Source: Allacma fusca | Taxonomy: Eukaryota > Arthropoda > Collembola > Symphypleona > Sminthuridae | NCBI GenBank assembly: GCA_947179485.1 | Contig: OX359248.1 | Span: forward strand, 28,157,378 to 28,221,377 | Length of the DNA stretch: 64,000 nt | Reading direction: 5' to 3' | In this document: positions 14,908-53,043 of the stretch, piece after piece | Layout of the letters: every line of letters begins with the position of its first letter | Position numbering within the stretch: the first letter of the stretch is position 1 | Notes under the pieces: model-generated | Database searches by the model: none | The model's input: only the letters and a program-made list of their open reading frames with translations | Told to the model about the DNA's origin: nothing | Made by a program: the position numbers and the translations under genes

Positions 14908-16571
14908 ATGGGTAGCCGATCGGACTTAGTAGGTGTGGATAGTGGTCAAAACCAAATTAAAGCCTTCACGGAAGGTTTCATCCCCAACATGTACCGTGAT
15001 CCAGACTCTTATCCTCGTAATGCTACCAAAGTCTTGAAAGCCATTTGTGACTGTCTAGGATTTGGTAAACCGACTTATATTCTTGAGAAGGTACTTATAC
15101 ATAATAATTACACTTTGACTATATTTTACCAAATTCGTATACTTTCTTTTAATTAATTTTTTAATCTCCTCCAATATTTTCAATCCAGGGACCAGTAGGC
15201 CCAGAGATCGAGAAAGTTCACCAAGTGACCTGTGACATTGACGGATTGATGTGCTCAGCCATGGCTACTAGCACTGAAGAGGCAATTCGTGGGTCAGCTT
15301 TCCGTATGTCAGTCAGACTAATGCCTTGCGTAACCTTCGACGAACTTCTAGCTTTGCAGAGACTCTGTACATTGCAAAGATTGCCCGTCAATGACGTCAC
15401 ACTATTAAAGCAGCTACTTTCACTTGCAAATCCCACATGCATTCATACTAATGATAGCAAAGGCGATGAGACTGGGTTGGAGTACGCTGTACAAGCTGTA
15501 AGGACAATTTTGTTCATAATGTACAAAACCATGTACATACTTAATGACGTGTCTCTCTCTTATTTATTTGATTCCGTTTGTAAACCCAATGAATTTTTCA
15601 TGCGCCAGGGATTTTTCGGATTGAGGTGTAACTGCCCTATTTTATAATATTATTGTTTAGGTAACTCATAGTTTTGAAACTAAGAGCCTCCCAGTCCAGC
15701 TTGAGTCAGCTAATCGTACTCCGTTTGATGTCCAAGTAGCGGGAAGCACTTTATTTTCTCTTCTGGGTTGCGCCAGCGCCGACAAAAATGTTAGTACTAA
15801 TCCATTGTTGAGCCTCCTGGAACCTCTTCAGCTTCTTCATATTACTGAGGTAGAACCTAATGTCGAGGGAGGAGTTTTGAACGGAGATGTTAATTTTACT
15901 GATAATTTGTAGGCTCCGAAGACATTTTACGGAGCGTTCCCTCCACACAGTTCTGGAAGAAGCTCTGCCTCAGAAGAGCTCAGCATTATGACAAAACCAC
16001 CGGAAGTGACGGATAATAGCACAGCTACTACTGCTATCATCAGCCCAGCCTTGGGTACTGGAGACAGTGACCCTGTAAATGATGAAGGCCGAAAACGCAT
16101 CACAAGCTGCTCCTCTTCCGTTAGTATTGCTAAGAAGCATTCAAATCGATGCTATGTATTTACTTGGATTTTGTGGAATTATTTTATTTACTTTTACTTG
16201 TAGGATCAGAGCTTAAAATCCACAAAGAGCACCGTGGATAGTATCAGTAGGGTCAAGCATTATTGCGATCGCCATGGGCTGAGGCATTTTTATCTTGTAG
16301 GCGTTCTTTCAAACCATTGATAAATAAGAAATTAAAAATAATCGTTAAATGCATTCAAATATAATCTCTTTCATATGTTCTTGTACATATATAGTGTGCT
16401 CAAGTTGCGGATTGTCTTTCACCGCACTTCAAAGCGGACCTAACTGTTGATCGAGCAATCCTGCTCAAGGAATCTCTACATTCCCATGGGTACGGTCGAA
16501 CGAAAAAATCTGCGAGACACAATGCTGCTTTTAACATGTTAGAGCAACTGGAGATGGAGACACATATTTGA
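14908..16571 (+). CDS. dsRNA-binding-domain protein, Loqs/TARBP2/R2D2-like
   Basis: Six exons join in phase: 14908-15090, 15189-15497, 15661-15849, 15913-16155, 16204-16296 and 16395-16571, giving 397 aa. The first dsRBD, around residues 40-110, starts ATKVLKAICDCLGFGKPTY and continues to VTCDIDGL; its helix-2 position reads STEEAIRGSAF, so the usual KKxAK RNA contact is lost. The C-terminal dsRBD (about 315-392) starts SISRVKHYCDRHGL and ends RTKKSARHNAAFNMLEQL, with the KKxA(K/R) motif intact. The middle may hide another diverged copy (from DVTLLKQLL), followed by a Ser/Thr-rich linker. Proteins with two or three dsRBDs assist Dicer and Argonaute loading in RNA interference. A specific orthologue cannot be assigned by eye. 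The exon 3 donor at 15850 has an alternative at about 15790. Confidence 0.75.
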
Positions 16572-41103: not shown

Positions 41104-42070
41104 TTACGTCAGTACAGAATCATGAAAATTATCATCCCGTGGGACCCGTAAATTATAAAACCTCGCAAATGTGTGTGATCCCGCTCTCCATCCTGCTGCT
41201 CTAAATATAACATCTGAAGTCACTCCTGCAGCCGCAGCCTTGGATGTGGCTGCATGGCGGAATGAATGAGCCTTAAAAATCGAGGTGTCAATACCGGCAC
41301 ACTCCAAACAACGTCTCAACCATCTACTGAGGGTCTGATTAGAAACAGGCCGGTGAGGCCGTTCGTAACTTAAAAATAAATTGTTAAACCTACGGTACGG
41401 TAACGTACGGTACAAATAATGACAAATAATATTCTGAAGACATAACTTATTATTATGGTAGGGTGGAAACGTAAACAAGGGTTGACATTGACCAGGTCTT
41501 GAAGTCTTCAAGAGATCTGGAACAGCAATAACAATACGATTTCCTTCATGTTTAATATTATTAGTTGTAATACAATTTAATGTCTGCACTCGTTGTGCTG
41601 TAACCAAAGCTAGCAGAGCCACCAACTTTATTGTGAGTCTGTCAATTGGGAGCTGGTCATTGCACTGCCAACCTTCAAACATTCGTAATATAATATTAAC
41701 ATCCCAAGTATGATCATAACGAGGACGAGGTGGTCTTAACCTGTAAATCCCCTTGATATAACGGATTACAACCGGATGTGTCCCTATTGAAAACCCCTCG
41801 ATAGGGGGAAGTAGCCATGACAATGCCGACCTGGCCGTATTTAGTGTACTGTAGCCTACATCCGTGTTATATAGATCATTCAGGAATTCTAATACCTGTG
41901 CTAGACTTGGACTAACACTATTCAATCCATTAAGGCGACAAAAATTGTACCACCTCTTAATATATGACTGATACTGTGACTGGGTGCTAGTGGACGCTGA
42001 CGCGAGAAGAATTGATATAGATTGCTCGCTGAGGTCGTGAGCTAAATAGGCCCGCCTGATAAAATTGCCA
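41104..42070 (-). CDS. DIRS tyrosine recombinase
   Basis: The frame is open from upstream of 42042, overlapping the RT stop codon in another frame, down to the stop at 41104. The first clear family-like segment is QSYIKRWYNFCRLNGL. A SAM-like core-binding part is followed by the catalytic domain with all expected residues: Arg in TAQRVQTLN, His and Arg in HSFRHAATS, Trp in GWRAGSH and the nucleophile Tyr in FARFYN. It would insert the circular double-stranded DNA copy by recombination, replacing the integrase of LTR elements. No ATG was seen near the start, so it may be made by frameshift or reinitiation after RT; the upper bound given is approximate. Confidence 0.9.
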
Positions 42071-43919
42071 CTGCCAGTCTCAACGTCTGAGCCAGAGGGT
42101 GAGCCCTAAAACATATATAAGAATTCAATAAATTCCTGTCTGGACCCAAGGTCAATATACTAGACCGTGCTAACCGCTGAAATAGGGGCCACCAGGGCTG
42201 TGCCGGCCATAGCGGCACTATAAATAATGCGGTGGCGTGATCTGCCTGGAGCTTATTTAATGCCCGCAACACTAAGTTAAATGGGGGGAATATATACGCC
42301 TTCCAATACTTCCAACTCATCGAAAAAGCATCTACGAACGATGAGCCTGGATCCGGATGCCATGAGGCATATAAATGACACTGGGCAGTCCACTGCGAAG
42401 CGAACAAGTCAATATCAGGAAAGAACCGTAATTCCGCGCAAATCTGGTTGAAAACCTCAATGTTTAACTGCCAGTCAGATTGATCGAGCTTGGAACGAGA
42501 TTGAACGTCTGCAATTATGTTCTCTCTAGTACCTATGTATGTAGCGCGAAGGAAGGATCCTACGGTCTGTGCCCACTGAAAAATTCTCTTGGCAATTGCA
42601 TGAAGCCGAGGAGCTCGGCACCCGCCATAATTATTAATATAGGATAAAGCGACCACACTGTCCATCCTGACTAGAATTGTGCTGTGGTACAGCTTGCTGG
42701 AAAACGACAATAATGCGTTCTCTACTGCTAAGAGCTCTAATTCATTTATGTGCATCTGTTGCTCTATCACAGACCAAAACCCCCGGGTCGTGTCAGTGTT
42801 GTTAATATTAGCTCCCCAACCGGTTAAGGAAGCGTCTGTCTCAATAATAGAGTCAAATGTGTCCGAACGAATATTGTTTCTGGCGTTATGGATAGAATCT
42901 CGCCACCAGCAGACGTCCTCCCTTGCCAGTGGGGAGATCGTGACGTGGGAACCAAAGTCCCCACTAGACTTAATTAAAGCTAAGCCCTTCTCCGCTTCTA
43001 GCTGGCGTGTGTACAATAAGCCAAAGGGTACGGCCGGAGTAGCCGACACTAAAATCCCAATAAAAACAGCCAGGTCACGGATGGTCATAACTGGACTAGC
43101 TAACGCCTTCTCACATAACAGTTGTATCCGGTTACGCTTATCAGACGGCAGTTGTATCACCATGTCCAGTGTATTGAATACAAAACCAAGATATAGCAAT
43201 TGTTGTGTTGGTACTAACACAGACCGGGAGAAGTTTATACGAAAGCCCACTCGCGTAAAAATTTCTAAAACTGCTCTTATGCTCTGATCACAGCGTTCTG
43301 GATCTTGCGCAACAACTCCAAAATCGTCTAAGAAGGCTATTAACTCGTGCCCCTGTGCCCGTAAAACCGCCAGGATGGGTTTTACAATCTTTGTGAAAAC
43401 TCTTGGGGCCGAACTTAAACCGAATGGTAATGCGGTGTATTCGTACATTTGATCGTCAAAAATGAAACGAAGGTACTTTCTTGAGTTCTGGTGGATGGGA
43501 ACCAGTAAATATGCGTCTTGCAAGTCCACCTTCCCCATGTACATATTCCGTTTAAGGAGGTTACAAAATGACCTATAGTCCTCCATTTTAAATTTACTAT
43601 AGCCTAAAAACTGATTTAACTCTTTCAAATTGAGTATCAAACGGTAGGTACCATCGGATTTGGGCACGGAAAAAATGCGCGAAATGAACTGACCCGGTAC
43701 CTCCCGAGCTTTAACCACTGCTCCGATTGTGAGTAACCTCGCAACGCAATTAGCGATAATCCGTCGTTCGGCAGTTTGAAAATGTACAACTGGGTAGACC
43801 CTCTGGTAAGGGGTTACATTAAACTCAAGTTTATATCCTTTAATAACCTCTAAAACGAACTGATTGGAAGTATGCTTCAACCACTCTGAATAAAATAGTT
43901 GAAGCTGTCCGGCATACAT
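42042..43919 (-). CDS. DIRS reverse transcriptase/RNase H
   Basis: An intact frame of 625 codons from the ATG at 43919. The RT core shows LNLKELNQFL, VDLQDAYLLVPIH, ALPFGLSSAPRVF and the catalytic FLDDF, followed by LYLGFVFN. The RNase H part starts IETDASLTGWGA with the first catalytic Asp, then ELELLAVENAL and RMDSVVALSYIN. The C-terminal region contains DIDLFASQW and a PDPGSSFVDAFSMSW-type block found in DIRS polyproteins, whose role I cannot state. The frame is open upstream of the ATG into the end of gag (offset frame), so a frameshift product is possible. Gag ends 11 bp before this ATG. Confidence 0.95.
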   Translation of the reverse strand: MYAGQLQLFYSEWLKHTSNQFVLEVIKGYKLEFNVTPYQRVYPVVHFQTAERRIIANCVARLLTIGAVVKAREVPGQFISRIFSVPKSDGTYRLILNLKELNQFLGYSKFKMEDYRSFCNLLKRNMYMGKVDLQDAYLLVPIHQNSRKYLRFIFDDQMYEYTALPFGLSSAPRVFTKIVKPILAVLRAQGHELIAFLDDFGVVAQDPERCDQSIRAVLEIFTRVGFRINFSRSVLVPTQQLLYLGFVFNTLDMVIQLPSDKRNRIQLLCEKALASPVMTIRDLAVFIGILVSATPAVPFGLLYTRQLEAEKGLALIKSSGDFGSHVTISPLAREDVCWWRDSIHNARNNIRSDTFDSIIETDASLTGWGANINNTDTTRGFWSVIEQQMHINELELLAVENALLSFSSKLYHSTILVRMDSVVALSYINNYGGCRAPRLHAIAKRIFQWAQTVGSFLRATYIGTRENIIADVQSRSKLDQSDWQLNIEVFNQICAELRFFPDIDLFASQWTAQCHLYASWHPDPGSSFVDAFSMSWKYWKAYIFPPFNLVLRALNKLQADHATALFIVPLWPAQPWWPLFQRLARSSILTLGPDRNLLNSYICFRAHPLAQTLRLAVAILSGGPI

Positions 43920-43930
43920 ACTTACTTCAG

Positions 43931-45084
43931 CTAACGGCCCCTTTGGGAGCGCTGGGTATACCCCCGGGTTTGGTTGAATCCTTGAAATCGACCGGACCCG
44001 CCTCTGTACTGATGGTGAGACGAGTCCCCCCGCCCGTTTAAAGAAGGCCGGTATGGCTGGTTAAACCGAGTGAATCTTTGATATGGTTGAAACCTCATTG
44101 AGGAACGGCTGGAACTTGCTCCACGCATAAGTCTCGCGGTGGTGTTGGCAGCCCGAAGGTCCGCGTCCAACGTGTCGCCAAATAACAATTCCGATATCGT
44201 GTCAGTATCACCACAGATGGAAGCTAGTGCGGGGTTCGTGCGCTTAATAATCGCGCGTCTTCGTTGACTGAGCTCCTTCAGGCCGAAGCCCACCAAACTG
44301 GCAGTATCCATTAGAGGGGATAACACTTCTTTAACACATTCCCTCGAGAGCCTCTTCTCTGTTGCCCATCCTAACACCAACTCAGCAATTCGAGCATTTG
44401 CCACGAGAGCCTGACTGAGTAAACCTTGGATATTCTGTAATTTTCCATCCGACGTGCGGTCACGGGGATTTAACTGACGCCACACTGGCGGGTTCACTCG
44501 AGGTACCACTAAATTTTTTAAATTTTCAGGGACCTTATAACTGTCCCTGTACCTCTGAGCCACCTCCTTCTGTAAAGCTCTAGTGGCAATGTGCTTAAAT
44601 GATACGGCAATCTTGTCTGAAACCCTAGGGCCATACTCGGGACTTTGATTTGTAGCTTCTAATACCTCATCTATTACGGATATTGTTTCGTCCGCCTCTA
44701 TAACCACTTCGGGTGTCTCGTCTGTAATACCTTCTAGTAAATGATTCAAAATCTCAATCTCATCTGGAGCTTCAGTATGCTCATCGTCCTCTACCTCGGG
44801 AATATCTGAATGAGCCTGGTGCAGCCTCGCTTCAACAGCCCCTGCCATTTCCTCCACACGGAGCATTATTGCCTCCATGGCACTCTCTAAGGAAGTACAT
44901 ACTGTGCATAAGGATTACATCCTGTTTAGGCTATACGTGTGACTAGGTACTTACGTTGCGAGGCCGTGGTGGCACTCATGGTAGATAACTTCGTTATCAA
45001 ACTATTCAAATCAGTTTCCTGGGACGGCATGGGACCCCCCGTGGCTGAGCCCTCGCTACGTTTGCGTGACCTTCGAGTCGCCAT
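43931..45084 (-). CDS. DIRS gag-like protein, spliced
   Basis: A 948-bp frame starts at ATG 44878, but a better model adds an upstream exon: ATG at 45084, exon 45084-44955, donor GTAAGT, acceptor CTTCCTTAG, exon 44886-43931. The two join in phase to give 361 aa, starting MATRRSRKRSEG. The N-terminal part is basic, the middle acidic (EVEDDEHTEAPDEIE), and the C terminus is Arg/Gly/Tyr/Gln-rich (YRGGSGRFQGFNQTRGY), typical of RNA-binding gag tails without a zinc knuckle. The likely role is packaging of the element RNA. Confidence 0.75.
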
Positions 45085-45467
45085 TTTATCTGGAGCGAGC
45101 ACGAGGCCCGATCTAAGAAATATTAAAGGGTTACCCCGAAATCCAAATGAAAAAAGGAACCACGTTCCCTGTATTGATATCAGTGTAAAATAGACTACGT
45201 CTAATTCCATACAATGTATAACTGTAGTTGTGTCAACTCAATAGAGACCGCGTCTCGTGGTAATTTTGGTGTCGGATAAATTGGAATTCCGCTAGAAAAG
45301 GAAGTAAAAGAAAAAAGACTTACGTGCCCTGAGGAGGGGATAAATCCGGTGGTCCTGAATGACCGTCCATGGTAACGCAATCACTAAGACCCACTGGACT
45401 TGGACGAACACTTGTGTAATAAGGGGAGCGCGACGTTCAGTGCTTACTGCTCGACATGAAAAAGTAA

Positions 45468-46860: not shown

Positions 46861-48147
46861 ACCCCAAAATATCTCCCAGGCTTGCAAGCAGTGAATGACC
46901 ACGTAGTGGTTGAGACACATAACCGTGGCCCAGACAATAAGTTTTATCGTGATTTCAAATTTTGCATCTATTTAGGGATATTTGTTTTGACCGCCACCCT
47001 TTTTGGCCTGGCAGCCTATTCTTGGCTGCAAATGACGGAAACTGGTAACATGCTTTTTGATCAACGTTTTGGATACCACCAAAGTCTCAGAAGTTTACCA
47101 CGCTCACGCGTGTGCCTTATAATTAACTAATTTTACCTGCACACTCTCACACAATCTGAATATGATAACAAAATAACGGTGGAATTCCTGATACCATTTA
47201 ATTGCAGTCCCAGCTACAATCACTTCTGAAGCTCCACAGCGGACTTCTGGGACATTTTTCACAGTGCCCCAAAGCACTACTACAGCATTATCCAAGCCTC
47301 CAGTGTCAGCTACCACGACGATTGTAACCCAACGAACAACTAGTGGTTTCCGTACAACAACCAGTGACGAGAAAACATCGTCCATGCTCACTTTGCCCCA
47401 TTCGTCAACTACAACACAACCAAGAAGTAGCTCTTCAGATGTAACTCCCCCTGACGAAGAAGCAACCACGCAATCAACTGGTGCCTGGATGACCACAGAA
47501 ATTTCGTCTACGTTTACAATCATTACAGCATCAACTAGCTCAGTGTCTTCCACAAATACTGCAATAAGTACTGAAACTGAAACCACCAATGAATTAGTAC
47601 GAACTACACCACATGTACAGATAACAACTACTGTTGCTCAAACGTCAGTTCAACTAACAACAACAGAAGAGCAAACAACAGCAGAATCCCAACCGGTACC
47701 AAAACCTATGGATATACTATTGGCTTTAGTAAATACTACATCCTTGTATGTAGTACGGTCAGGGTGGGAGGGCTGCAAAACAAATATTCTACCTGGAAAT
47801 TGGTATAATTTAACTTCTGTTCTGCTGTATAAAAAGAATTCCACTACTGCGTTCTCCGCAAGCGGTTAGATCAATTATTTACTTCTATGAAAAATGTTAT
47901 CTTAAATCCGTATTCTACTCGAAAATGATAATAATTCTTGGTAACTAAAGAAGGTACGTTATTTCTTGCAGTGCTCTCCTCTTCTAAAAACCTAGAAACT
48001 AGTCATCAAGGACCAGCTTTCCTCATCTTGAATCATACATTTCCCGATGAATTGAGCATGTACCAGGATCCAATAACAGGGTGGTGGCCAAAACTTTGGG
48101 AAGATTCACACTGGACAAATTCTACGACTGTTTTTACATGCAAATGA
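46861..48147 (+). CDS. Mucin-stalked type II membrane protein with degraded dsRBD-like C terminus
   Basis: Exons 46861-47044, 47208-47864 and 47972-48147 join in phase to give 338 codons; the start lies in an unfound upstream exon (acceptor TTTTAG at 46860, phase 0). One transmembrane segment is at about residues 34-55 (FCIYLGIFVLTATLFGLAAY), preceded by Lys/Arg and followed by none, so the N terminus should be cytosolic. Residues about 62-225 are Thr/Ser-rich (STTTALSKP, TTTIVTQRTT), typical of an O-glycosylated extracellular stalk. The C-terminal 85 residues start PMDILLALVNTTS and include SSSKNLETSHQGPAFLILN; they align with the dsRBD of the next gene but have lost its Lys cluster. Sequons NLT, NST and NHT are present. 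No known full-length family was recognised. Confidence 0.7.
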
Positions 48148-48931: not shown

Positions 48932-50058
48932 ATGGTAAGTTAAAAATAAGCCGGCTCTATGCCCAATAACAGAAGTTTTACTACTTAAGATTTTTTTTTA
49001 AATCTCTAAAATTTCTAGGAAACGCCAAAGAAGACTGAAACATGGAACGGTGATATGAGCACTTTCTCGACACCTGCCCAACCTGAATCACCCTGTCATG
49101 GCATGGCCATGAATTCTGCCGTTAAAGACAAAACACCTCTCTGGACCTGGATTTCAATACTGTTTTCCGCCATTATTCTGTCCAACTCAATTTTTTGCAC
49201 TCTGCTACTCTGCCATGTTGCTTTCACTAATCAAGAAACACGATCATCTCTCCGTAAATTCATTATAATTTATAATCCAATAAAAATTAAGCCAATATCT
49301 TGAGAATCCTGCAATCACAATACTGACCAAAATATATTACTCCTTTTACTTTTCAGTACTACTTTCAACAAAACTGGATGGCATTATTGCCCAGAAAGCA
49401 ATTCCTAATTTTATGACCCCGGCTGAGGACAAGGGATTCTTTTCTGATATTAAGAAGGGGTTGATGGAGCCAGAAGCTGAAATGATGGAAGAGGTAATTA
49501 TGTAAATGCGAACTATTTATACAAGCTATAGACTTTGCATGCATGTGTACATACATATGTACGTCTCTATTCTCGAATTTAATAGCTAGTGGCTGGTAAA
49601 TCTCCATCAGAAGATGAATGCCCAGCTTGTCCGCCATGTCAACCAGAGGAAGGAATCCCAACTAACAAAGATCCTGTCAGCTTTATTAACATGATATACC
49701 ATGCTTCAGCCACATACACTTGTAAAACCGTTTGTTTAAATCCTCCCGTCCATATTGCGACTTTGAGCATCCTGAACCACAGTGAAACGTGGGAGAAGAA
49801 AGGTAAATTAGCTGTATTTAATTTGCAGAGCCCTTGTAACAAATCCTCCAGAAAATACTTTCAGAAATATTCGATTATCTCTTTTTGGTAATTTCAGGGA
49901 TTACGAAAAAACGCAGTAAGCAAGAAGCAGCTTTCGCGGCTCTAAAAGTCCTTAATGCCAGCTTGGCAGAACAGGTTGTGTTTATATCTGAACCCTATAA
50001 TCCTACATGCAAAAGTAAATCAGTTTTGTTTGGTCTGGAAGACGGTAGTAAATGCTAG
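48932..50058 (+). CDS. Membrane-anchored double-stranded RNA-binding-domain protein
   Basis: Five exons join in phase: 48932-48934 (the ATG alone, donor GTAAGT), 49019-49253, 49357-49493, 49586-49802 and 49898-50058, giving 250 aa. A transmembrane segment is at about residues 42-66 (WISILFSAIILSNSIFCTLL). A charged linker follows, with a CPACPPC cluster at 137-143. Residues about 153-216 fit a dsRBD: helix 1 DPVSFINMIYH, the PPVHIATLSI strand after the NPP loop, and helix 2 KKRSKQEAAFAALKVL with the RNA-contacting KKxxK pattern. Sequons NHS and NAS and the cysteines suggest an extracytosolic C terminus. dsRBDs bind A-form RNA helices; a membrane-tethered, outward-facing one is unusual. Paralogue of the upstream gene by layout. 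Function unknown. Confidence 0.78.
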
Positions 50059-50186: not shown

Positions 50187-50290
50187 CGTGCCGCAGGAGC
50201 TCTCACCCTCATTTTTAATCATGCCGGCTATTTTGTTGATGTTGTCTCATGAGGGAAGTTTCTTCTTCGTACATTTTTATCATGTTTAGT

Positions 50291-51064
50291 TTATCTACAT
50301 CCTTTCCTAACTGATCGAATTCCATTAGGGAAATTGATGGTTGATGTATCATGAATAAAGTCTGGAACGTAGTTGTTGGTTTGAGAGTGAACGCACTGCC
50401 ACTTTCCGCCGAAACCTCGTTCACTAAATATGGTCCAAGGATCATTGCCAGTCACAATGAAAGATACTCCCTTAAATCCCACATCAGAACTTTCTCGATC
50501 TACCATCCACTGTCCGGCGCGGAAGTAGGTTTTCTCATATACAGTGAGGGTAGATCCACGATAATTATTAGAGTATCCGGCATATCTTGCGGAGGAAACT
50601 CTACCTCCAATGTTTCTAAAATTTACGCAATTCTCGCTGTCACCGACGTGGTAATAGTACTCCATTTGCTCATTCTCGTTTTGAGAGTAGTCGCGGCTAG
50701 CATAAAAGAGCCAGCTGTGGGAAACAAGGATCATGTTAATTCTCAAAAAATCGCAAAAAATAAATGCTTCCAATAGATTAAATCAAACCATGTAAATTTT
50801 ACTCTGTTCTGTTCAAAAAATACAAAATAGTTCAACTCACACTCCTTTAACGCAGGTGGACCGGGCTTGCCTATCAAAATTTTGCTTTCTTAGGTCTGGA
50901 TAAAACGATTGGTCCAAAAACACGTTGTTACCGCTCCTCTTATCCTTTTCGTAATTAGAAAACAAGGTAGCTTCTTGTTGATAGTTGGCGCTGACCCCAA
51001 GCAGATTTTCTGTGATCACAAAGACCATCAGTAATGCTCCGAGCATTCTGACTGAATTTATCAT
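50291..51064 (-). CDS. Secreted beta/gamma-crystallin-fold protein
   Basis: Two - strand exons join in phase: 51064-50841 and 50714-50291, 215 aa. The ATG at 51064 opens a signal peptide (RMLGALLMVFVITENLLGVSA). A linker with a dibasic KDKRSG and a QARS site follows, suggesting pro-peptide cleavage. The domain begins CVKGVWLFYASRDYS and contains RYAGYSNNYRGSTLTVYE and SFIVTGNDPWTIFSERGFGG, ending NFPNGIRSVRKGC. The repeated strand order and the Tyr/Trp-x-x-F/Y-x-x-x-x-F-x-G motif fit two Greek-key units. Such proteins are structural or Ca-binding, and secreted ones occur in several invertebrates. The model uses acceptor TTTCCCACAG; an ORF-extended start in the intron was rejected. Confidence 0.75.
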
Positions 51065-53043
51065 GTTCAATAAATTTCAGGAGAACGACGTTTGCAGTGA
51101 GGAAGGAATACTAAACTCGCAATTTCAGATAAAATTATATTCCGAAAATATTTTGAGCTGCTGTGTCAGGGTTGGACTTGAGTGTTTGAACTGAATAACT
51201 CAACATAAGTTTGGATCGGTATTTAAACCAATTTGATGTGGATTCAACCAATTACAAGTGACAGGGTAATATATTTTAGAGGTACCACATGACATTTAAA
51301 AATTAAGATAAGTAAATAAAATGTCTCTGGCATTATTAAAAACAAACGTGAGTACATGGATTCATGGGTGGATTTATGCATTGTACATTTTACTCGAAAT
51401 AAATAATAGAGCCGCTAATTATTTATGCAAAAAAGGCATTCTCCTTAATTGCAGTTTTTAACGAAGTGTGTCAAAGGGCAAATTAATTCTGGTGGTTATT
51501 GGAAACCAAACTTGGCATACTTATTTGCAAGCCATGCTTGCTGATGTAAAAACGCATCTTCCAACGACAATAAATTAAGTATTAATCTGCTGTCATAATT
51601 ATCCCGTCAGGGTGACAAAGTTGACAATGAATTACATTTGACAAGCAATACACCAATGAGGTTTCAGAGTCTATTGTATATCAGGTAATATTGAAAGTGT
51701 TCATAAATTATCTCAATAATTGAAATAATTGTTTTTATAACAGGGCAGGTGTGCAAACATTGGATATTTTTGAGAGGACAATACATTTTAAATAGAGAAT
51801 TATTTATTCTAGCTCTACTAAAATTTGTCATAACTTTTCCAATGTTTATGGAATCAGTAAATTGCATCCACGTGATTATATTTTTTGCTCAAAACTATAT
51901 TTTAGTTTTAATGTCATACAACATCTGTCTGTATTTTCTTTGACGGGTTTTGGTTAATGTTTGTTCCGCATTCTGCAAGAAGGATTTTTTACAACAACTA
52001 ACTATCACTTTACCCTTGAAATGAGATGCACAATTTATTATATTCTATTTGTACTTTTGGGAACAGCTTCGTCACTCATCTATCATTTCGTTTTCAGGTG
52101 GCATATTGGCAATCTATAGTTGGATAGTTGGGTTCAGTTTTCAGTTCTTTTTCACACTCGCGCAACAAATGCATGTATGTATCCCGGTATGCTCTATGCC
52201 TCTAATGTTACCCTATGGAAACAAGATCCCTGCTTATTAAATGATATTTCCCAGTGAAGTGCAAATGCCGATAAAAATGTTTACAATGCACTTAATATTT
52301 TAAAGTAGCAATTATTCAACAAACCATTTTGAAAATAATTTTTTATTGTAATTTGAAATAATTGAGTTTTAATTAGAAGTCCAGGCGAAAATGATAACAT
52401 AATTTAACATTTTGACTGAGAAAGGCTGAAAGAGCAATACAATATTAATATAATATAATATATTTAATATAATATATTATGTAATGATGAACTTTAGCAA
52501 ATTAATTTCTCAGCAATAACATTTGCAATTTCCATAAACTAGTAGATACAAAAAATTAATTGCGCTTGTATAAGAAAGTATTGGAACTATTGGAAGTTGG
52601 AAAGAGTTTCACGTTTATAAGATCATCCCGAATGGTTGAATCAATAAATAAATTAGGTGGAGTAATATTGAGAGAAAGTACATTTTCCTCGCTGACTGTT
52701 AATTGCTTTCGGACTCAATACAGCATCAAAATTATTCTCGTGTTATAATCAATTGTATTTTAAAGAAATAACAATATTCAATTTAAATGTCATGATTTTA
52801 TAAACACGGCTATCTAGAATTTTAATAATTAAACCACCTTAGTCAAGGTATCTTCAAGTAACGAAACTCGCATTTGTATAGCTATACCGTTATTATATAT
52901 TCATTATGCAAATAGTCAATATTTCTACGCGTGTTGTGAGCCTTGAGCTGTGTACAGTAGCCTAAAGTCAATCACGTCAAAACTAACTCAACACAATTAG
53001 TGCAACATTGAAAGCACAAGTAAAAATAAAAGGTTTTAGAAAT
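51065..53043. other. AT-rich intergenic stretch
   Basis: No exon chain was recognised. It holds the promoters of two divergent genes and an AT palindrome-like tract at about 52440-52482 (ATATAATATA-type repeats). Confidence 0.55.

What the first reader, a model, noticed from the sequence alone, without database searches (positions are those of the whole stretch)
48932..50058. A dsRNA-binding domain tethered to a membrane, predicted to face outward
Seen: a five-exon model with perfect phase encodes one transmembrane helix, a Cys-containing linker and a C-terminal domain with the dsRBD order (helix 1 DPVSFINMIYH, PP loop, strand, helix 2 KKRSKQEAAFAALKVL). Known: dsRBDs normally sit in cytosolic or nuclear proteins such as Dicer partners, ADAR and Staufen. 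Inference: with N-in topology, sequons and cysteines the domain would be extracellular or lumenal, where it could capture dsRNA from the environment, gut or viruses, or present it to an uptake channel such as SID-1. I know of no described family with this layout.
Basis: partly seen in the sequence, partly recalled or inferred. Interest (0 to 1): 0.88.

Follow-up and report, generated by a model that had tools for sequence, protein, structure and literature searches.

The report
Springtail membrane protein with dsRNA-binding domain
A gene of the springtail Allacma fusca joins one membrane-spanning helix to a degenerate double-stranded-RNA-binding domain; if that domain really sits outside the cell, it would be an unusual kind of RNA catcher, but which side it faces and whether it binds RNA are not known.

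Summary
The five-exon reading holds: exons 48932-48934, 49019-49253, 49357-49493, 49586-49802 and 49898-50058 give 250 aa. A public Allacma fusca protein is identical at 249 of 250 residues; UniRef calls it 'DRBM domain-containing protein'. One strong membrane helix is present (residues 45-66). The C-terminal domain falls below Pfam's dsrm cut-off (12.9-15.2 against 23 bits). Against 12 dsRBD pieces of the same genome it scores 17.5 bits, best of 20,000 shuffles 10.2; against only the seven Pfam-found pieces 7.9 bits, which 14 of 20,000 shuffles reach. Only its second half aligns; structure prediction failed twice. The outward topology is not established: charge bias is 2 against 1, sequons at chance. 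Only its own exons match in its genome, and no relative was found by word-based searches of 5.8 billion proteins. The genome carries about eight SID-1-family loci, so extracellular dsRNA handling is a live idea. Best reading: a membrane-tethered divergent dsRBD, more likely than not lumenal or extracellular; function and topology untested.

The parts
48932..48934 (+). exon 1: start codon only
   Evidence: followed by GTAAGT; P0001 begins with the same residues METPKK
49019..49253 (+). exon 2: residues 2-79 and first base of codon 80; N-terminal tail and membrane helix
49148..49213 (+). predicted membrane helix, residues 45-66
   Evidence: hydropathy maximum 2.25, 35 of 5000 shuffles reach it
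49357..49493 (+). exon 3: rest of codon 80 to residue 125, linker
49586..49802 (+). exon 4: residues 126-197 and first base of codon 198; Cys linker and first half of the dsRBD-like domain
49619..49639 (+). CPACPPC motif, residues 137-143
   Evidence: hinge-like role is inference
49667..49802 (+). dsRBD-like domain, first part (residues 153-197): PVSFINMI helix-1 pattern, NPPVH loop
   Evidence: pattern seen by eye; stretch before residue 174 not recovered by profile alignment
49898..50058 (+). exon 5: rest of codon 198 to residue 250 and stop; contains helix 2 with KKxxK (201-205) to about residue 218 (49959), then a C-terminal tail with Cys 235 and 250

Best explanation
The gene encodes a single-pass, signal-anchored membrane protein found so far only in Allacma fusca. 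Its C-terminal domain is a diverged dsRBD, most similar to Dicer-partner-type (TRBP/Loquacious-like, my label) dsRBDs of the same genome. Proposed mechanism: N terminus inside, stalk with hinge-like CPACPPC cysteines that could form disulfide-linked dimers, and dsRBD in the lumen of the secretory or endosomal system or on the cell surface. There, the PxH loop and the KKxxK helix would hold dsRNA against the membrane, for uptake or sensing. Shown: splice-consistent model, membrane helix, dsRBD-like second half, no second copy found. Inferred: topology, dimerisation, RNA binding, any link with SID-1.
For: Model and public twin. Pfam dsrm is the only family hit for the full protein and the best of two for the crop. 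Same-genome dsRBD profile of 12 pieces: 17.5 bits against a best of 10.2 in 20,000 shuffles; hhalign probability 80.2% against 4.6% for the best-scoring of 200 shuffles. Leaving out the L002 piece found with the target still gives 16.0 against 10.5; leaving out all L002, all L006 or the second window gene gives 15.5, 17.8 and 13.9, with no shuffle as high. Pairwise z 8.8 and 6.1 against pieces of L002 and L006. A phase-1 intron lies between strand 3 and helix 2 here and in L006 dsRBD1 (both sides seen) and L002 (acceptor side seen), 2-4 codons off. KKRSK (201-205) and PPVH (178-181) fit dsRBD contact positions that I recall. Membrane helix. About eight SID-1-family loci in the genome. Injected dsRNA works parentally in another springtail, Orchesella cincta (PMC3910676, passages).
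Against: Pfam score below cut-off, and the crop has a second weak Pfam hit (INTS7_HB, 13.4 bits). Helix 1 and strand 1 not recovered. With only the seven pieces that Pfam itself found, the domain scores 7.9 bits and 14 of 20,000 shuffles reach it; with the first nine-row profile 2 of 20,000 score higher. Of 13 pairwise comparisons two are at chance (L001 z 0.04, L007 z -0.22) and one is weak (L004 z 1.98). Both AlphaFold runs failed (pLDDT 41.9 and 34.9). Charge bias is slight and sequons are at chance. The conserved glutamate of dsRBD helix 1 (recalled) is replaced, Met161 by my alignment. No conservation outside one species could be shown. In another springtail, Sinella curviseta, dietary dsRNA had negligible impact (PMC4945638, abstract).
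Confidence: 0.35

Rival explanations
1. Same protein, opposite topology: the dsRBD faces the cytosol and the helix anchors a Loquacious-like dsRBD to the ER, endosome or mitochondrial surface, for example at sites of RNA-virus replication or Dicer loading.
For: All natural dsRBDs that I recall work in cytosol, nucleus or organelle matrix; charge bias is almost nil (2 vs 1 K/R in 15-residue flanks, 2 vs 2 in 20); sequons at chance; the RNA-contact lysines are kept (sequence).
Against: The slight charge bias of the nearest flanks points the other way; seven cysteines in the C-terminal 184 residues, CPACPPC among them, suit an oxidising compartment.
Confidence: 0.25
2. The domain is a dsRBD fold that no longer binds RNA and serves as a protein-protein or dimerisation module of a membrane protein.
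For: Helix-1 glutamate lost and domain highly diverged; degenerate dsRBDs can serve as dimerisation modules (recalled, third dsRBD of TRBP/PACT/Loquacious).
Against: KKxxK and PxH positions are kept (sequence).
Confidence: 0.2
3. The domain is not a dsRBD: a lysine/alanine-rich amphipathic helix mimics dsRBD helix 2.
For: Only the second half aligns; Pfam 12.9 bits against a cut-off of 23; 14 of 20,000 shuffles reach its score on the seven-piece profile; no confident structure.
Against: 0 of 20,000 shuffles reach the score on the 12-piece profile or on four reduced versions of it, and 2 of 20,000 on the nine-row one; the pattern PVSxIN...PxH...GxTKKxxK...AAxxAL is in dsRBD order; UniRef assigns DRBM, by a rule not shown.
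Confidence: 0.12
4. Gene-model chimera: the membrane exon belongs to a different transcript from exons 4-5.
For: No RNA evidence seen; exon 1 is a bare ATG; the public protein may itself be only a prediction.
Against: All junctions are GT-AG in matching phase, introns of 84-103 bases, and the public protein joins the same parts.
Confidence: 0.08

Closest known systems
dsRBD proteins of the TRBP/PACT/Loquacious/R2D2 type (Dicer partners)
   Same: The two highest pairwise scores of the C-terminal domain are to pieces of L002 and L006 (z 8.8 and 6.1 of 13; the L002 piece was picked up with the target itself); phase-1 intron between strand 3 and helix 2. The TRBP/Loquacious label of L002/L006 is my reading, not a tool result.
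   Different: One recognisable domain, not two or three; below Pfam cut-off; preceded by a membrane helix and a Cys-rich stalk.
SID-1 / SIDT family dsRNA channels (PF13965) and SID-2
   Same: The proposed place of action, dsRNA at the outer face of a membrane (recalled).
   Different: No sequence relation was found (Pfam); this protein has one helix and a dsRBD-like domain. SID-1-family loci lie elsewhere in this genome.
dsRBEC, an engineered fusion of the PKR dsRBD with EGF (PMC5012564, abstract and outline)
   Same: A dsRBD working outside the cell to deliver dsRNA by receptor endocytosis.
   Different: Man-made, soluble, canonical dsRBD.
The second dsRBD gene of this window (14908-16571)
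   Same: dsRBD with G-x-TKK and AAF patterns like the target domain (pairwise z 5.3).
   Different: No membrane helix in its public relatives (hydropathy maximum 1.18 in P0002, 0.69 in P0003, against 2.25 here); relative P0003 passes the Pfam cut-off.

Membership tests
dsRBD superfamily (PF00035 dsrm) | profile score above the curated cut-off | tested here: not met
   12.9 bits full, 15.2 bits crop, cut-off 23
dsRBD superfamily (PF00035 dsrm) | significant similarity to bona fide dsRBDs | tested here: met
   17.5 bits to a 12-piece same-genome profile, 0 of 20,000 shuffles as high, residues 185-218 only; robust to leaving out L002, L006 or the second window gene, but only 7.9 bits (14 of 20,000 shuffles as high) with the seven Pfam-found pieces alone; nine-row profile 11.9 bits, 2 of 20,000 higher
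dsRBD superfamily (PF00035 dsrm) | alpha-beta-beta-beta-alpha fold | tested here: inconclusive
   AlphaFold pLDDT 41.9 and 34.9
dsRBD superfamily (PF00035 dsrm) | dsRNA contact positions: helix-1 Glu, GPxH loop, KKxAK (recalled) | tested here: inconclusive
   by inspection of the protein: Glu absent (Met161 by my alignment); PPVH 178-181 and KKRSK 201-205 present
dsRBD superfamily (PF00035 dsrm) | binds dsRNA | not testable with these tools
   needs a binding assay
single-pass type II membrane protein | one hydrophobic helix | tested here: met
   residues 45-66, the only stretch above 1.6; next highest 1.47 at residues 209-227
single-pass type II membrane protein | no cleaved N-terminal signal peptide | not tested
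   judged by eye from the 44 residues before the helix; no predictor on hand
single-pass type II membrane protein | N terminus cytosolic | tested here: inconclusive
   K/R 2 vs 1 in 15-residue flanks, 2 vs 2 in 20-residue flanks
TRBP/Loquacious family | two or three dsRBDs, soluble (recalled) | tested here: not met
   one domain hit, one membrane helix

The most novel reading that the evidence does not exclude
A springtail-specific cell-surface or endosome-lumenal dsRNA receptor: a dsRBD taken from a Dicer-partner-type gene, put behind a signal anchor and a disulfide stalk, which captures extracellular dsRNA in an animal with a large set of SID-1-family channels.
Probability: 0.17. Interest if true: 0.88.

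Novelty: new variant of a known kind. Interest (0 to 1): 0.5.

Why it matters
Natural outward-facing dsRNA binders that I recall (TLR3, scavenger receptors, SID-1, SID-2) do not use a dsRBD. A natural membrane-tethered dsRBD on the outside would show how an intracellular RNA module can be re-used for extracellular RNA, and would be a testable piece of environmental RNAi in a basal hexapod. Even with the domain in the cytosol, a membrane-anchored dsRBD would be an unusual architecture.

Tried and rejected
Structure prediction of the single sequence and of a three-row alignment with P0003 and P0002 gave no usable model, so no fold search was run. The three-row model shows two strands and a helix (167-174, 180-187, 201-219), but at this confidence it is not evidence, and the single-sequence model showed helices only. 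PDB sequence search: three chance-level hits to one receptor over residues 15-86. NCBIfam: none at E up to 1. Phage DNA and IMG/VR: no match, so a viral origin gets no support from these. Flanks of 40 kb on either side of the window (eight loci): no dsRBD-like peptide above 5.6 bits among the 25 best listed, and only weak tblastn hits (best E 0.091, N-terminal part). Full-length search of the genome gave only the gene's own exons; a search with the domain alone did not complete. A bacterial-type promoter scan is meaningless here. The genome paper PMC9630974 was searched for annotation and RNA terms: no occurrence. The 12-piece profile was made after the nine-row result was seen (P0003 removed, four pieces added, one of them, L002a, also a tblastn hit of the target), so it is not blind; one search was run to test this, and the blind seven-piece version is clearly weaker. 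In one search the shuffle test gave no output and was repeated; the second half of the script failed.

Full report
Source. The window is G000:C12:28157378-28221377 of an assembly of 392,743,791 bases. Contig C12 has 58,810,162 bases. The genome note of Allacma fusca (PMC10427803, passages) gives 392.8 Mb and a chromosome 4 of 58.81 Mb, and the public twin of the target protein is named Allacma fusca. So the window is almost certainly from chromosome 4 of this globular springtail.

Observation. The five-exon model holds to the base: GT-AG introns of 84, 103, 92 and 95 bases, matching phases and 250 codons. P0001, an 'unnamed protein product [Allacma fusca]' (longest contig 30,249 bases), equals the spliced translation except for A129 in place of G129. 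UniRef names it 'DRBM domain-containing protein', by a rule not shown. The finding is therefore a predicted, uncharacterised gene already in public protein sets. I saw no RNA evidence; the genome note says that annotation with RNA-Seq was still to come, and the earlier genome paper has none of the annotation or RNA terms looked for (PMC9630974).

Is it a dsRBD? Pfam dsrm is the only family for the full protein at E up to 10, with 12.9 bits; the crop from residue 154 gives 15.2 bits, E 0.032 against 24,736 models, cut-off 23, with a second weak hit, INTS7_HB, at 13.4 bits. I then used dsRBDs of the same genome. One search found seven places of PF00035, all over the cut-off; neither dsRBD-like gene of the window was among them. 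A first profile of nine rows scored the domain (residues 131-250) 11.9 bits, and 2 of 20,000 shuffles scored higher. A second profile of 12 pieces, made after that result, scored it 17.5 bits and the full protein 15.9; the best of 20,000 shuffles reached 10.2 and the reversed sequence -1.5. hhalign of residues 150-224 gave probability 80.2% against 4.6% for the best-scoring of 200 shuffles. The check: without the piece L002a 16.0 bits (best shuffle 10.5), without all L002 pieces 15.5 (11.7), without L006 17.8 (10.7), without the second window gene 13.9 (9.7); but with only the seven pieces, 7.9 bits, with 14 of 20,000 shuffles as high and the best at 12.6. Pairwise, z ranged from -0.22 (L007) to 8.8 (L002a) over 13 pieces. 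In the profile comparisons only the second half aligns, strand 3 through helix 2 and in Pfam part of strand 2. The helix-1 pattern DPVSFIN and the PPVH loop are visible by eye in the right order but are not carried by the profile scores. The intron between strand 3 and helix 2 is phase 1, as in dsRBD1 of L006 and, on the acceptor side, in L002, but 2-4 codons displaced. I judge a diverged dsRBD likely (about 0.85), and RNA binding open.

Topology. There is one helix at 45-66 (hydropathy 2.25; 35 of 5000 shuffles reach it). Lysine plus arginine in 15-residue flanks is 2 before and 1 after; in 20-residue flanks it is 2 and 2. Two sequons are at chance. Seven cysteines in the last 184 residues, with a CPACPPC stretch like an antibody hinge (recalled), favour an oxidising side. 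I give about 0.6 to a lumenal or extracellular domain.

Distribution. No other protein at E up to 1 for the full length (270 candidates) or at E up to 10 for residues 150-222 (7 candidates) among 5.8 billion sequences. The method needs shared 5-residue words and a similar length, so distant relatives and single exons called as short genes can be missed. Within the genome only the gene's own four longer exons match (3 candidates scored). No match in IMG/VR to the six peptide patterns used.

Context. I did not test whether they are intact. SID-1 paralogues need not carry RNA: in C. elegans CHUP-1 does not (PMC5714486, start of the abstract in the listings). Springtails do respond to injected dsRNA (Orchesella, PMC3910676, passages), while ingested dsRNA had negligible impact in Sinella (PMC4945638, abstract). 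So an outward dsRNA receptor is possible here, but nothing ties this gene to uptake.

Literature. Paper searches of the held open-access library (for membrane or extracellular dsRBDs; 50, 102 for springtail RNAi) listed no natural membrane-anchored dsRBD. Of several lists only the top was shown: 20 of 560 papers, 20 of 30, 15 of 186, 15 of 53, 15 of 624 in 102; searches had 5, 0 and 3 papers in all. The nearest thing is an engineered PKR-dsRBD-EGF fusion (PMC5012564, abstract and outline).

Verdict. The architecture is unusual, seen in one species only so far, and cheap to test. The outward-facing RNA-capture reading stays a hypothesis at about 0.17.

Noticed in passing
14908-16571 (+): A second dsRBD gene in the same window: six exons, 397 aa by my model; Pfam dsrm 21.7 bits (cut-off 23), Dicer_dimer 16.5; relatives P0002 (Allacma, partial) and P0003 (JGI, 55% identity, dsrm 25.7 bits)..
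   Followed up: partly
G000:C10 15.51-21.30 Mb and C5 0.57 Mb (loci L020-L027 hold eight of the matches): About eight SID-1-family (PF13965) loci in this springtail genome, five of them within about 380 kb (39 matches). Possible expansion of dsRNA- or sterol-transport genes; intactness not tested.
   Followed up: partly
41104-45237 (-): Retroelement with reverse transcriptase (42042-44060) and tyrosine-recombinase (Phage_integrase, 41104-42105) open frames, DIRS-like by layout (label recalled).
   Followed up: no
46861-48147 (+): The gene just upstream looks like a membrane-anchored protein with a Thr/Ser-rich mucin-like stretch and several sequons; no Pfam match at E up to 1 for 47192-47869.
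   Followed up: no
50215-51076 (-): The next gene downstream, on the other strand, has a signal-peptide-like start; no Pfam match at E up to 1 for 50291-50782.
   Followed up: no
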